Origin: an uncultured Acidovorax sp.
GTDB taxonomy: Bacteria; Pseudomonadota; Gammaproteobacteria; Burkholderiales; Burkholderiaceae_C
Direction: 5' to 3'
Length of the DNA stretch: 64,000 nucleotides
NCBI GenBank assembly: GCA_913774625.1
Contig: CAJYHL010000051.1
Coordinates: forward strand, 124,001-188,000
In this document: in pieces, positions 53,344 through 63,996 of the stretch
Numbering within the stretch: position 1 is the stretch's first letter
Layout: each line of letters opens with the position of its first letter
Notes under the pieces: generated by a model
What the model was told of the DNA's origin: nothing
What the model saw: the letters and a program-made list of their open reading frames with translations, nothing else
The model's database searches: none
Translations under genes and position numbers: made by a program

Positions 53344-53786
53344 GAAGCACGCCAGACCGCCGCTGGTGCCGTATGGGAAACCTGGCACTGGAGGAACGTC
53401 CGGACTGCACAGGACAGCGTAGCAGCTAACGGCTGCCCACCGTGAGGTGAGGATCAGAGCAACAGAGACGAGTCGAAGCGGGCAACCATGCCAGGCCACC
53501 GACGGTGTTCTATCGGTCGCCCGCGCAAGCGGGCACGGCTGGCGCAAGCCAGACGGTTCGCGGCTTTCGAGCCGCGAAGACCATAGCCACCCGAAGCGGG
53601 CGGCGCCCGCTTCGGGTGAAACGGGCAATCTCTACGCGCAGCAATACCAAGTAGGCCAGCGTCGATGTGGTTCCGCAGAGCTGGCGGGTAGGTAGCACCG
53701 AGCCGTGGCGGCGACGCCCGGCCCAGATTAATGGCGGTCACGTTCGGGCAACCGAATGCACAGAATCCGGCTTATCGGCGTGCTTC
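53344..53786 (+). ncRNA. rnpB: RNase P RNA (M1-like, bacterial type A)
   Basis: GAAGCACGCCAGACCGCCGC... AGGAACGTCCGGACTGCACAGGACAG; GAGATGAGG-like core; CAGATTAATGGCGGTCACG...ACAGAATCCGGCTTATCGGCGTGCTTC. 5' GAAGCACGCC pairs with 3' GGCGTGCTTC. Confidence 0.95.
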
Positions 53787-53866
53787 ACACTTTCTTCTTT
53801 CCGGCAGGCCGCGCCTGCCCCATTCCCTTTCCGCTCCCCTTTCCGTTCCCCCGGCGCCCGCCTGGG

Positions 53867-59686: not shown

Positions 59687-59919
59687 CTAGCGTTTCCAGA
59701 CCATCCAAACTGGCAAGCCGCATGCGAGCCAGGCGCACACCATCAGCGCGATGCCGAACGGACTGCGCGGCTTCCGTCCCTGTGCCTGCATCCAATCGTC
59801 TGCCTGGCGGCGGCAGTCGGCCAATACGGGTGCGGGAAGCAATCTCGCCGCAAGCCAGATCAATGCAGGCAGCAGCAGGACATCATCCAGATAGCCCAGT
59901 ACCGGGATGAATCGCGGCT
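59687..59919 (-). pseudogene. DUF1232 (YkvA-like) C-terminal gene fragment, 5' end missing
   Basis: [26 protein letters not shown]...[29 protein letters not shown]; sequence upstream of FIPVLG is unrelated and belongs to an IS30-like fragment. Confidence 0.72.
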
Positions 59920-60039
59920 CAGGCTGCCTGCGCTGCGCCCCAGCGCCCGCCCAATACAGCGCAGGCTCTGGCCCTGCGCCCTCTGCGTCTGCAGCATCAC
60001 CCGCTCTTCGGGCTATAACTGCTGGAATCTTCTCGTCAT
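59920..60039 (-). mobile_element. IS30-family transposase N-terminal remnant (with in-frame stop)
   Basis: Minus strand from 60039: [42 protein letters not shown], the IS30-type N-terminal HTH, then fusion to the DUF1232 fragment. Confidence 0.75.
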
Positions 60040-60135
60040 CTTCACACCCTACCTCATGGGCCCGGTGTTGCATTTCGGATTTGAGACTGCCCTTCGATTT
60101 CCAGCTGATGTTGCACCCGTTTTCCCGGCCCCGTC

Positions 60136-60243
60136 CTATTCGCAATAACGCGCCCAATCAATATAGGCTTGCTCCGGGCGCAGGCTGTAATGCCGCGTGC
60201 GGGGGTGGGAGCGCATGCGCTCCAGCAGCTTGGGCTGACGCAC
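60136..60243 (-). pseudogene. intI: Integron integrase (IntI) N-terminal fragment
   Basis: Minus strand [35 protein letters not shown]: matches the IntI N-terminal SAM-like domain pattern (..HYSLRTEQAYVxWxRxFI..), truncated after DWAR. Confidence 0.78.
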
Positions 60244-60398
60244 TTCAGTAAACGATTCAGGAGTCGGAGCTCAACCAGGGCTCATCCGCCAAATTTCAGG
60301 TTTGCCTAACCGGCATGATGCTGGGTCTTCCTGGGGATGGGACGAACGGTGTTGTGTTGGCAGACTGCGGTCGGTAGGATGTCTGTCGTCTAAATCTA

Positions 60399-60405
60399 GT
60401 TAGGC
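60399..60405 (+). other. GTTAGGC recombination-type core site (putative attI or first-cassette boundary)
   Basis: GTTAGGC immediately 5' of the first cassette-like ORF and on the divergent side of the intI fragment; GCCTAAC occurs at 60304-60310. Confidence 0.5.
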
Positions 60406-60429
60406 CTCACAGAAATACAGGAGCACTGG

Positions 60430-60771
60430 ATGAGCATTTGGGTAAGAGCGCTCTTATTCGCTTTCGTCGGAGCATTCATGGCACTGGCTGCGTATAGCCT
60501 GGCAAATGGTGACAGCAAAGCAGCATGGGGCGCATTTCTTATTGCAGCACTTGCATGCCCTCTTCTCATCGAAGCCTGTTGGCCTAGCAAGTACGCTCTG
60601 CGAAAACCATCAGACGGCACGCCCGATACGTTGTCGAATCGTCTTAGGCAGTTCAGGAGTGAGCATCCCGGCATGGATGGCACTCTTCTACTTGGCACCT
60701 TTGTGGCCATCTCTTTAGCGACTGTCGCCGGAGGAGCCATCGGCTTGCTGGCGAGCTTCAACTTCTTTTAG
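60430..60771 (+). CDS. Hypothetical membrane protein (113 aa, putative cassette ORF)
   Basis: MSIWVRALLFAFVGAFMALAAYSLANGD...GTLLLGTFVAISLATVAGGAIGLLASFNFF: predicted TMs; starts 25 nt after GTTAGGC. Confidence 0.65.
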   Translation: MSIWVRALLFAFVGAFMALAAYSLANGDSKAAWGAFLIAALACPLLIEACWPSKYALRKPSDGTPDTLSNRLRQFRSEHPGMDGTLLLGTFVAISLATVAGGAIGLLASFNFF

Positions 60772-61064
60772 CCGCAATTTATTGAGGCAAGCTCATCCAT
60801 GAGAACTACTTTCCACTCCGTGCCCCAGCCTAACCTGTCTACAGGGACTTCCCGGTTAATCAAGCGGATTGATTTTGGTGGTATTCGATAGCCGCCTTCG
60901 CTGTTTTCCTCAAGACCTGAGTTCGGGTTCGATGCAGCGCCACAGAGAACAGACTGCACATCTACAGGCGGCCTTGTTGCACTCGGGTTCCGGTGCGGGC
61001 CCAGATACCAACCGCTCAGCAGGGCTCCATTCGTTCGCCGCCGTCGCCACAACTGGCGCGGCAC
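60768..61064 (-). CDS. Hypothetical protein, reverse oriented (98 aa)
   Basis: ORF ending ...INREVPVDRLGWGTEWKVVLMDELASINCG, convergent with 60430-60771 (4-nt overlap). No recognised family. Confidence 0.35.
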   Translation of the reverse strand: MPRQLWRRRRTNGALLSGWYLGPHRNPSATRPPVDVQSVLCGAASNPNSGLEENSEGGYRIPPKSIRLINREVPVDRLGWGTEWKVVLMDELASINCG

Positions 61065-61159
61065 AGGGTTAGTCGAGCTTGCCTGCTGCCGGTCTGACCT
61101 GTGAATTGCATCTTCGAACGCACGTCTACGGGGAAGAACTTGTGAGTTGGGTGGGCGTT

Positions 61160-62242
61160 TCAGGCCGTGGCGGTGCCAGGTCTTGCCGGCACCTCGCCGG
61201 GCTTGACCGAGACGTAGTTCGGATCAAACTCTCGCCCCTTGGCCAGCAGTGCCCAGACGATGCGCGCGCTCTTGTTGGCCAGCGCCACCACCGCCTTTTG
61301 CCAGCCCACGCGGGCCAGCAACTGCACTAGCCACTGCGAGATCTTGTCGCTGCGTTTGTGCGCCGTCATGACTGCCGACTTGGCGCCCTGGATCAGCAGC
61401 GTGCGCAGGTAGTCGTCGCCGCGTTTGGTGATCCGGCCCAGCACCGTCTTGCCGCCGCTGGAGTTCTGCCGCGGCACCAGGCCCAGCCACGAGCCGAACT
61501 GCGCGCCGTTCTTGAACTGCTTGAAGTCGCCCACCGTGGCGACCAACGCCGAGGCGGTTACGGGGCCGATGCCGGCGAGCTGCGCAGCAGCCTTGGCCTG
61601 CGCGTCCGAACGCACATGCGCGGTGATGCGCTCGTCGCAACTCGCGATGTGGCACTCCAGTTCGACCCAGTGCAGGCGTGCCTCCTGCAGGGCCAGGCGG
61701 GCGATGCCGGGCAACTCGTTGCTGGCGTCCTCCAGCACGTCGGCCAGGCCCAGGCGCAGCGCCTCTGGGCTTTGCGCGAAGACGATGCCGAACTCGGTGA
61801 GCAGGCCGCGGATGCGGTTGATGCAGGCGGTACGGTCTTCCTTGTAACCCTCGCGCAGGCGGTGAATGGCCAGCAGCGCCTGCTGGGCCGGAGTCTTCAC
61901 TGGCACGAAGCGCATGTGCGGCCGGCCCGCGGCCTCGCAGATCGCGGCGGCATCAGCCGCGTCGTTCTTGCCGCCTTTGCCGGCCATGCGGTAGGGCGCG
62001 ACGAAGTGGCCCGCGATGAGGCGTGCATCCAGGCCGTAGCCGCGCAGCTTGCGTGCCCAGTGGTGAGCGCCGCCGCAAGCCTCCATGGCAATGAGGCAAC
62101 CCGCGGGCAACTGCGCGCACCAAGCTGCGAACTTGTCGGCTGGCAGGGCCTTGGCAGCCACCACGCGGCCTGTTGCATCGACCGCGTGAACCTGGATCAC
62201 GCGCTTGGCCAGATCGACGCCGACTCGGGTAATCTCGTTCAT
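61160..62242 (-). mobile_element. IS110 family (IS1111 group-like) transposase
   Basis: MNEITRVGVDLAKRVIQVHAVDATGRVV (DEDD-type N-terminus); C-terminal transposase_20 domain LAGIGPVTASALVATVGDFKQFKNGAQFGSWLGLVPRQNSSGGKTVLGRITKRGDDYLRTLLIQGAKS. Confidence 0.93.
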
Positions 62243-62349
62243 GGGCTTCCCCTTTCAAAGGACCGCAGATTGACGATTCGCACCCTCAATCTTGGCGCCT
62301 CGACGCCGTGGGCCAGAAGGTGGGAAGTCCCTTCGTATTCGTTGCAGCT

Positions 62350-62415
62350 GACGCCAACAGCTTCGCTGTTGGTACCCTGCGCTTCGCTCCGGCGCCGCTG
62401 AAATTGGCGTTAGGC
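62350..62415 (+). other. Right portion of an attC-like site ending in GTTAGGC
   Basis: CAGCTGACGCCAACAGCTTCGCTGTTGGTACCC...GCCGCTGAAATTGGCGTTAGGC: internal hairpin CCAACAGC/GCTGTTGG and terminal R' box; left half not found next to it. Confidence 0.6.
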
Positions 62416-62424
62416 GCCTCTGAA

Positions 62425-62904
62425 ATGATTGTGAATCACCCTCCATCCAAACGAAGCAAGTACGAGCAGCTTTTTGCTGTGTCGGAGCGTTTTTACACGG
62501 AACTGGCAAAGCAGCCTGGTGACTTTGCTGTAAAGCAATGTCAAAACTGGGAGAAGGCAAAGCTGTTCTATGCGGACGCGCTCGCCTCAAAGAAAGCGAC
62601 TCGATCGCAGATTGCCGCCGGGCTCAGACAAGGTCTACGCGAGACCCCTAGAATTCTTGACTCCATGCCCGGACCCGCGCGAAAGGCAGCGATGAGGGCA
62701 TTGGCTGCCGCTTTTCAGACCGAGTGCCCAGACTTTCTTCTCCAGGATAAAGACCGCATGGTAAAGATTCGTACGCGCAAGAGCATTCGAACCGAAGCAG
62801 AGTTCTACTTGGTTAGACACCAGATTGATCTTCTAGAGGAAACCGAAAAATCAACAGAGTTGGCCGAGCTATACGCTCTATTAGATCAATACGAGGCGAG
62901 ATGA
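62425..62904 (+). CDS. Hypothetical protein (putative cassette ORF)
   Basis: MIVNHPPSKRSKYEQLFAVSERFYTELAKQPGDFAVKQCQNWEKAKLFYADALASKKATRSQ...; starts 10 nt after GTTAGGC and ends just before a GCCTAAC box. Confidence 0.7.
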   Translation: MIVNHPPSKRSKYEQLFAVSERFYTELAKQPGDFAVKQCQNWEKAKLFYADALASKKATRSQIAAGLRQGLRETPRILDSMPGPARKAAMRALAAAFQTECPDFLLQDKDRMVKIRTRKSIRTEAEFYLVRHQIDLLEETEKSTELAELYALLDQYEAR

Positions 62905-62911
62905 GGATGGC

Positions 62912-62971
62912 GCCTAACCCTTTATTCAAGCGGACGCGACTTCGTCGCACTGCTTAAGTCAGACGTTAGAG
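62912..62971 (+). other. attC-like integron recombination site (about 60 bp)
   Basis: GCCTAACCCTTTATTCAAGCGGACGCGACTTCGTCGCACTGCTTAAGTCAGACGTTAGAG: R''/L'' and L'/R' boxes with central hairpin GCGACTTCGTCGC. Confidence 0.88.
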
Positions 62972-62974
62972 CTC

Positions 62975-63433
62975 ATGGAATTCAGTGCACTCGCCGGTCA
63001 TCGTCTGAATTCGTTGCGCCTTTTGAGCGTGGGGACCCATCCCGCTTGGGCCGACCACACCTCGCCTCAGATTGCTACGTACGCAGCGAACTTGGAACTT
63101 TCCGAGAACGGGCCTTGCGTTCAAGTGCGGCCATGCGAAGTACCGATTCCGAATGCCTACCCTGCACTGGGGATCGAACTGTGTGATTGGCCCGAGTCGC
63201 CGGGTGTGCAGCGCTGGAACGAGGAAGAATATGCGGTCGAAACCCCAAAGGAATTGGCGCATTTCCTACCCGCAGACATCGAAACAATTAGGCTATGGGA
63301 TTCGATGGGTGAAGGCGTAACCTCAGCGCTAGACCTTGTCCTAAGCACCGGCGCGACCATTACCCTTCGACACGTCTTCCCGCCAATGATGCTTGGCGTT
63401 GATGTGCACACCGAGAAGCACTATGAGCTCTAG
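62975..63433 (+). CDS. Hypothetical protein (putative cassette ORF)
   Basis: MEFSALAGHRLNSLRLLSVGTHPAWADHTSPQIATYAANLELSENGP...; lies exactly between two attC-like sites. Confidence 0.7.
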   Translation: MEFSALAGHRLNSLRLLSVGTHPAWADHTSPQIATYAANLELSENGPCVQVRPCEVPIPNAYPALGIELCDWPESPGVQRWNEEEYAVETPKELAHFLPADIETIRLWDSMGEGVTSALDLVLSTGATITLRHVFPPMMLGVDVHTEKHYEL

Positions 63434-63439
63434 CCTGTC

Positions 63440-63539
63440 GCTCAACAGGACCCGCAACGGCTTGCCGCCTACGGGGCCTTATTTCATTCTGGCCCTTCGG
63501 CGGCAAGCCGTCGCGGGCTGGTTAGCTTCAACGTTAGGC
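63440..63539 (+). other. attC-like integron recombination site (about 100 bp)
   Basis: GCTCAAC...CCCGCAACGGCTTGCCGCC...GGCGGCAAGCCGTCGCGGG...GTTAGGC: long imperfect palindrome bounded by RYYYAAC and GTTRRRY. Confidence 0.85.
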
Positions 63540-63546
63540 CTCCTGT

Positions 63547-63996
63547 ATGCGAGTGTCAGCCTCTACCACTGTTGCCAAACCAGCTGAGACTCTCTTCTGG
63601 CTGTCTCAGGACTACAACCGCAGGCTCGAATGGGACAAGTACCTTTCTGAGGCCTATCTCCTAGGCTCCGCCACCGTTGCAGCCGTGGGAGCTGAATCGT
63701 TTTGCAGAAATCGTAGTGGCTCAGTGCTGGTTTCCAAGTACATATCCTTTTCGCCACCATCCCATGCCGCCGTTCAGATGTCCTCCGGCCCATGGGTGTT
63801 GAGCAAGTTCGGCGGCACATGGCGGTTCGAAAGCATCGACGAGCGCAGCACAAAAGTCCGATTCATCTATAACTTCAAGGCTCGCCCAGCTGTACTCAAA
63901 TGGCTAATGGAGCCGATCATCGGTAGCCTGTACCGCAGAGACATGCAGCGTCGACTAGCTGCATTCAAGCACTGGGCGGAAAAGGAGACTGCTTGA
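63547..63996 (+). CDS. SRPBCC/polyketide-cyclase-like small protein (putative cassette ORF)
   Basis: MRVSASTTVAKPAETLFWLSQDYNRRLEWDKYLSEAYLLG...GTWRFESIDERSTKVRFIYNFKARPAVLKWLMEPIIGSLYRRDMQRRLAAFKHWAEK: START/SRPBCC pattern. Confidence 0.72.
   Translation: MRVSASTTVAKPAETLFWLSQDYNRRLEWDKYLSEAYLLGSATVAAVGAESFCRNRSGSVLVSKYISFSPPSHAAVQMSSGPWVLSKFGGTWRFESIDERSTKVRFIYNFKARPAVLKWLMEPIIGSLYRRDMQRRLAAFKHWAEKETA

What the first reader, a model, noticed from the sequence alone, without database searches (positions are those of the whole stretch)
60136..63996. Decayed chromosomal integron with cassette array at the right end of the window
Seen: a minus-strand IntI N-terminal fragment ([31 protein letters not shown]), then in the opposite direction short ORFs separated by attC-like sites (62912-62971, 63440-63539, partial 62350-62415). 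Established: this divergent intI/cassette geometry defines integrons. Inference: integrase is lost, so the array is frozen locally, although cassettes could be mobilised by an integrase in trans.
Basis: partly seen in the sequence, partly recalled or inferred. Interest (0 to 1): 0.78.

Follow-up and report, generated by a model that had tools for sequence, protein, structure and literature searches.

The report
Decayed chromosomal integron with stranded cassettes
This is the wreck of a bacterial gene-capture platform (an integron) in a relative of Paracidovorax wautersii: the recombinase gene is destroyed but the docking site and at least six captured gene cassettes remain, one cut by a jumping element that targets such sites; it is a new example of a known kind, with comparative signs that integrases elsewhere in the cell worked on such orphaned platforms.

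Summary
The minus-strand fragment at 60148-60285 is the N-terminus of an integron integrase (79-84% identical to intact IntI of five related genera), with a stop at codon 5 and about 300 residues missing. Next to it is attI (core 60399-60405), then at least six cassettes, two of them beyond the window. A covariance model built without this array finds attC at 62912-62971 (52 bits), 63428-63539 (25), 64025-64091 (49) and 65044-65099 (39), and nothing else in the window.

The genome has no intact intI. It holds five integron remnants. None of 17 genomes of the genus has an intact intI, against 111 of 251 in the family.

At two sister loci intI was deleted before the split from P. wautersii. Yet the homology of the two species stops exactly at the attI crossover, with different cassettes beyond. 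An integrase therefore probably acted in trans after cis intI was lost.

Loss of intI with stranded arrays, and IS1111-attC insertion, are known (Xanthomonas). This is a new member of a known kind; the trans-served orphan attI loci are the interesting part.

The parts
59687..59923 (-). 3' part of a truncated small membrane-protein gene (DUF1232/YkvA-like), the left chromosomal flank; intact in P. wautersii
   Evidence: homology to P. wautersii C30 stops at 59923; weak DUF1232 match, below the Pfam cut-off
59924..60040 (-). remnant of an IS30-family transposase N-terminus (HTH_38) with a stop
   Evidence: PF13936 29.6 bits
60106..60146 (.). 41-bp end of an ISPa56-like IS3-family element abutting the intI breakpoint
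   Evidence: 95% and 90% identity to IS3/ISPa56 elements on two plasmids
60148..60285 (-). intI relic: about the first 45 codons of the integron integrase, with in-frame TGA at codon 5 (60271-60273); catalytic domain absent
60350..60405 (+). attI, core GTTAGGC 60399-60405
   Evidence: conserved in 9 other integron loci of the genus and in intact integrons of related genera
60430..60771 (+). cassette 1 ORF, 113 aa, hydrophobic, unknown function
   Evidence: lies between attI and the R'' half of attC1; no Pfam, NCBIfam or PADLOC match
60828..60839 (+). attC1, 5' part (R'' GCCTAAC 60828-60834)
   Evidence: joined flanks give an 88-nt attC
60840..62339 (-). IS1111-attC type insertion sequence: 11-bp subterminal repeats AGGGACTTCCC / GGGAAGTCCCT, 3- and 7-bp terminal extensions, about 320-bp non-coding region downstream of tnp
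   Evidence: homologous elements start right after an attC R'' in several related genera; family features from PMC11187229
61160..62242 (-). IS110-family (IS1111 group) DEDD transposase, 360 aa
   Evidence: NF033542 337 bits; PF02371 and PF01548
62425..62904 (+). cassette 2 ORF, 159 aa; relatives in other genera lie between attC sites
62912..62971 (+). attC2
   Evidence: CM 52.2 bits, E 5.8e-11; bottom strand folds into the attC hairpin
62975..63433 (+). cassette 3 ORF, 152 aa; a relative in another genus is flanked by attC
63428..63539 (+). attC3
   Evidence: CM 24.6 bits, E 5.4e-4; bottom-strand fold z = -7.6
63547..63996 (+). cassette 4 ORF, 149 aa, SRPBCC/polyketide-cyclase-like; its attC is at 64025-64091, just past the window (L004:5025-5091)
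   Evidence: PF10604 48.8 bits; attC4 49.3 bits

Best explanation
A decayed sedentary chromosomal integron. Ancestrally it worked like any integron: IntI recombined single-stranded attC hairpins of circular cassettes into attI. Shown: intI was reduced to about 45 codons carrying a stop, with IS3- and IS30-family debris at the break; attI and at least six cassettes with intact ORFs remain; attC1 is split by an IS1111-attC element; no intact intI was found elsewhere in the genome. Inferred: insertion-sequence insertion and deletion removed intI, so cassettes can no longer move by a cis-encoded integrase; cassettes 2 onward can still excise if an integrase is supplied in trans, while attC1 is blocked while the IS sits in it. 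In this species group integrases probably did act in trans on attI platforms that had lost their own intI.
For: IntI identity and truncation. attC: independent covariance model, attC structure with compensatory changes in its training set, bottom-strand folds, class-1-trained scan with shuffles. attI homology to intact integrons. Relatives of cassettes 2 and 3 lie between attC sites in other genera. IS1111-attC insertion. IS debris at the break. Trans activity: orthologous intI-less attI loci share the deletion, but their homology ends exactly at the attI core with different cassettes beyond.
Against: The trans step is inferred from two species and draft contigs. Whole-array replacement by homologous recombination with an unsampled strain could mimic local turnover, although an integrase would still have had to act at an intI-less attI somewhere. 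No strain-level data show whether the window array is static. attC3 scores only 24.6 bits. attC2 alone does not fold better than shuffles (z = -0.8), although its sequence and pairing fit the model strongly. The scan found no sigma-70-like Pc promoter.
Confidence: 0.92

Rival explanations
1. The array is a CALIN-like cluster assembled at secondary sites, and the IntI-like fragment is an unrelated tyrosine recombinase remnant.
For: The fragment is only about 45 codons long, and the Pfam domain match is below threshold.
Against: The fragment is 79-84% identical to IntI of related genera, and the adjacent DNA is attI plus the intI upstream region, homologous to that of intact integrons. The first cassette starts at the attI core.
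Confidence: 0.03
2. The array is completely frozen: no integrase has acted on it since its intI was lost, and differences from P. wautersii arose by IS activity, deletion and homologous recombination.
For: No intact intI in the genome or in 17 genomes of the genus. IS remnants flank the array. At the orthologous locus P. wautersii carries a different integron type, so this locus was rearranged wholesale.
Against: At two sister intI-less loci, and at the C24 locus, homology breaks precisely at the attI crossover, which IS or random deletion would not produce repeatedly.
Confidence: 0.35
3. The platform is a recently acquired mobile integron, on a transposon or plasmid, that decayed after insertion.
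For: IS30, IS3 and IS1111 sequences are adjacent. The platform differs in type from the one at the orthologous position in P. wautersii.
Against: The attI/intI region has no match in 72,556 plasmids. The same platform type sits at a conserved chromosomal position in five genomes of the genus. No transposon ends or resistance genes were seen.
Confidence: 0.08

Closest known systems
Sedentary chromosomal integrons of Xanthomonas with truncated or absent intI and CALINs (PMC12444791)
   Same: Ancestral platform, intI mostly truncated or lost, cassettes retained, further intI-less arrays at conserved loci, and IS1111-attC elements cited.
   Different: Xanthomonas has one canonical locus (ilvD) and CALINs described by attC alone. 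Here at least two intI-less arrays keep a recognisable attI, and one genome carries several related platforms.
Complete chromosomal integrons of related Burkholderiales genera (loci L131-L135)
   Same: Homologous intI, attI and attC arrays in the same divergent layout.
   Different: Their intI is intact (337-363 aa); here about 45 codons remain, with a stop.
IS1111-attC group insertion sequences (Tetu and Holmes 2008; Post and Hall 2009; ISKpn4 and ISPst6 in PMC11187229)
   Same: DEDD transposase, about 11-bp subterminal repeats, 3/7-bp extensions, non-coding region downstream of tnp, insertion next to attC R''.
   Different: Not compared with ISfinder entries, so it may be a new isoform; its seekRNA was not examined.
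Class 1 integrons
   Same: attC structure and divergent intI/array geometry.
   Different: Different intI and attI, chromosomal, no resistance cassettes, no functional integrase.

Membership tests
Integron (chromosomal, decayed) | intI encoding an integron-type tyrosine recombinase | tested here: not met
   Only a broken N-terminal relic; none over the TIGR02249 cut-off in the genome. It is therefore called a decayed integron, not an integron.
Integron (chromosomal, decayed) | attI next to intI, with the first cassette joined at its core | tested here: met
Integron (chromosomal, decayed) | array of cassettes separated by attC in the same orientation | tested here: met
   Four intact attC and one interrupted attC between six ORFs
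Integron (chromosomal, decayed) | Pc promoter driving the first cassettes | tested here: inconclusive
   No sigma-70-like site found by a simple scan
Integron (chromosomal, decayed) | cassettes recombine | not testable with these tools
   -
CALIN | at least two attC without a nearby functional integrase | tested here: met
   it additionally retains attI and an intI relic
IS1111-attC group IS | DEDD IS110/IS1111 transposase | tested here: met
IS1111-attC group IS | subterminal inverted repeats of 11-13 bp with short asymmetric extensions | tested here: met
   AGGGACTTCCC / GGGAAGTCCCT with 3- and 7-bp extensions (definition)
IS1111-attC group IS | insertion into attC, also elsewhere | tested here: met
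   Relatives in several other genera start right after a RYYYAAC and end before the rest of an attC; for two of them the joined flanks form an attC
IS1111-attC group IS | seekRNA-guided targeting | not tested
   -

The most novel reading that the evidence does not exclude
This bacterial group runs, or recently ran, a distributed integron: several related attI platforms scattered over the chromosome, some without intI since before speciation, whose cassette arrays were filled and exchanged in trans by one or a few integrases located elsewhere and since lost independently in each species. The window locus would be one of these satellite platforms.
Probability: 0.45. Interest if true: 0.6.

Novelty: new member of a known kind. 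Interest (0 to 1): 0.42.

Why it matters
Integron integrases are assumed to serve mainly the attI beside them, and arrays without intI are usually treated as fossils. Orthologous attI sites that lost intI before two species split, yet carry different cassettes joined exactly at the attI crossover, are natural evidence for integrase action in trans on satellite platforms, and make that directly testable. The genus-wide loss (0 of 17 genomes with an intact intI against 111 of 251 in the family) also gives a clean case of repeated integrase inactivation with cassette retention, parallel to Xanthomonas.

Tried and rejected
A first attC scan with strict pairing rules missed real sites through poor rules and was replaced by a class-1-trained score and a covariance model. 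Rfam gathering search: no attC family match, only RNase P. A plasmid search for the attI/intI region found nothing, so recent mobile origin was rejected. A minus-strand ORF at 60768-61064 was considered as a second gene of cassette 1 and rejected, because most of it lies inside the IS. PADLOC and NCBIfam gave no function for the window cassettes. Literature search for Paracidovorax with integrons: one unrelated paper.

Full report
Where it is. The window is contig C51:124001-188000 of a draft genome of 4.66 Mb (estimated 100% complete, 73 contigs). The contig continues 9.7 kb to the right and was read as L004 (window position = L004 position + 59000). G008 is Acidovorax sp. Leaf160, by the same match of contig length.

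The integrase relic. It aligns at 79-84% to the N-terminus of intact 337-363 aa IntI proteins in five related genera, and the adjacent non-coding DNA is also homologous. The start codon is at 60285-60283; codon 5 is TGA (60271-60273; sequence); homology stops at about 60148. There a 41-bp piece of an ISPa56-like IS3 element (60106-60146) and an IS30-type HTH remnant fill the gap to a truncated DUF1232-like gene whose intact form lies at the same place in P. wautersii. No intI passes the TIGR02249 cut-off anywhere in the genome.

attI and array. The attI core GTTAGGC is at 60399-60405, in a block conserved over the genus. Cassette order: 1 (ORF 60430-60771), 2 (62425-62904), 3 (62975-63433), 4 (63547-63996), 5 (64245-65003), 6 (about 65104-65606); the last two lie past the window. 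I built an attC covariance model from 21 sites, six from class 1 integron cassettes on plasmids and fifteen from other loci of this group, none from the window array. The attC pairing in that training alignment is supported by changes on both sides of pairs (31 cells against a mean of 11 in shuffles, 0/500). The model finds exactly two sites in the 64-kb window at E<=5, 62912-62971 (52.2 bits) and 63428-63539 (24.6 bits), and two in the continuation, 64025-64091 (49.3) and 65044-65099 (38.5). A simpler score trained only on class 1 sites agrees (best of 200 shuffled arrays 26.7; the sites score 24.6-29.3). Bottom strands of attC2 and attC4 fold into the expected hairpins; attC3 folds far better than shuffles (z -7.6), attC2 does not (z -0.8).

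The split attC1. Related elements in other genera show homology from the attC R'' box to a position just before the rest of an attC. It has an IS110/IS1111 transposase (NF033542, 337 bits), 11-bp subterminal repeats, 3- and 7-bp extensions and a non-coding stretch downstream of tnp, which are the IS1111 features given in PMC11187229. Joining the flanks yields an 88-nt attC with R'' and R' boxes and L arms (27.2 in the class-1 score), although its arm pairing alone is not better than shuffles (253/2000).

Cassettes are genuine. The family of cassette 2 is patchy (10 of 401 genomes, 8 genera), and four of the seven relatives examined lie in attC arrays, at least two with attC directly on both sides; cassette 3 (4 of 401 genomes) has a relative flanked by attC. 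Cassette 4 is SRPBCC-like. No defence or resistance family matched the window cassettes.

Other integron loci. The genome holds five attI or intI-relic loci: C51 (window), C24, C33, C16 and C72. P. wautersii holds orthologues of four: C17 (=C24), C25 (=C33), C33 (=C16) and C30 (=window position), plus further attC clusters. No genome of the genus (17) has an intI over the cut-off, against 111 of 251 in the family. The lesions at the C24 locus differ between species: this genome and P. wautersii share none that I could see, while G002 and G014 share theirs. So intI was lost several times.

The in-trans argument. At C33/PwC25 and C16/PwC33 the sequence runs from attI through the intI upstream region straight into the flank in both species (93.6% and 95.1% identity over 672 and 798 bp), with no intI match. 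The intI deletion is therefore older than the split. On the cassette side homology stops exactly at the attI core. PwC25 has ten attC sites and PwC33 eight; this genome has one at C33 and none detected at C16, and cassettes are not shared except for one 72% segment. Junctions at the attI crossover are the footprint of integrase, so an integrase acted in trans after the cis gene was lost, here or in donor strains sharing the deletion. This is inference from two species. For the window locus itself it is only an extrapolation, because P. wautersii carries a different intI type (like this genome's C72) at that position.

Comparison with the known. PMC12444791 reports that most Xanthomonas have lost integrase activity, with intI truncated or absent, and carry intI-less attC clusters at conserved loci. 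Insertion of IS1111-group elements into attC is established (PMC11187229, PMC11089894). The window feature is therefore a new member of a known kind. The less usual part is orphan attI platforms that still turned over; that this has not been described before rests only on the held open-access library and on memory.

Noticed in passing
L005:9000-10475 (C24): The first gene after the C24 attI encodes a 491-aa ATPase-TOPRIM (OLD/PtuA-like) protein, related to anti-phage defence ATPases (PADLOC 140.7 bits); no clear attC follows it.
   Followed up: partly
L006:10453-11241 (C72): Second cassette of the C72 integron encodes an HNH-endonuclease-like protein matching defence effector models.
   Followed up: partly
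window 60290-60320 and the equivalent region of all attI loci: A conserved near-palindrome TTTAGGCAAACCTAAA lies just upstream of the intI start in intact integrons of related genera and persists in the intI-less loci; function unknown.
   Followed up: no
window 59923-65846 against L127 (P. wautersii C30): At the orthologous chromosomal position the two species carry different integron types; the type in P. wautersii here sits at C72 in this genome.
   Followed up: partly
L029 (P. wautersii C25) and L030 (C33): Two attI-headed arrays of about ten and eight cassettes with no intI nearby.
   Followed up: partly
window 53344-53790: Bacterial RNase P class A RNA gene (192.5 bits).
   Followed up: no
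L027:4000-9500 (C16): The region after the C16 attI holds several ORFs, including a duplicated gene starting MPTCFNCRAN, but no attC passed the model; possibly a strongly decayed array.
   Followed up: no
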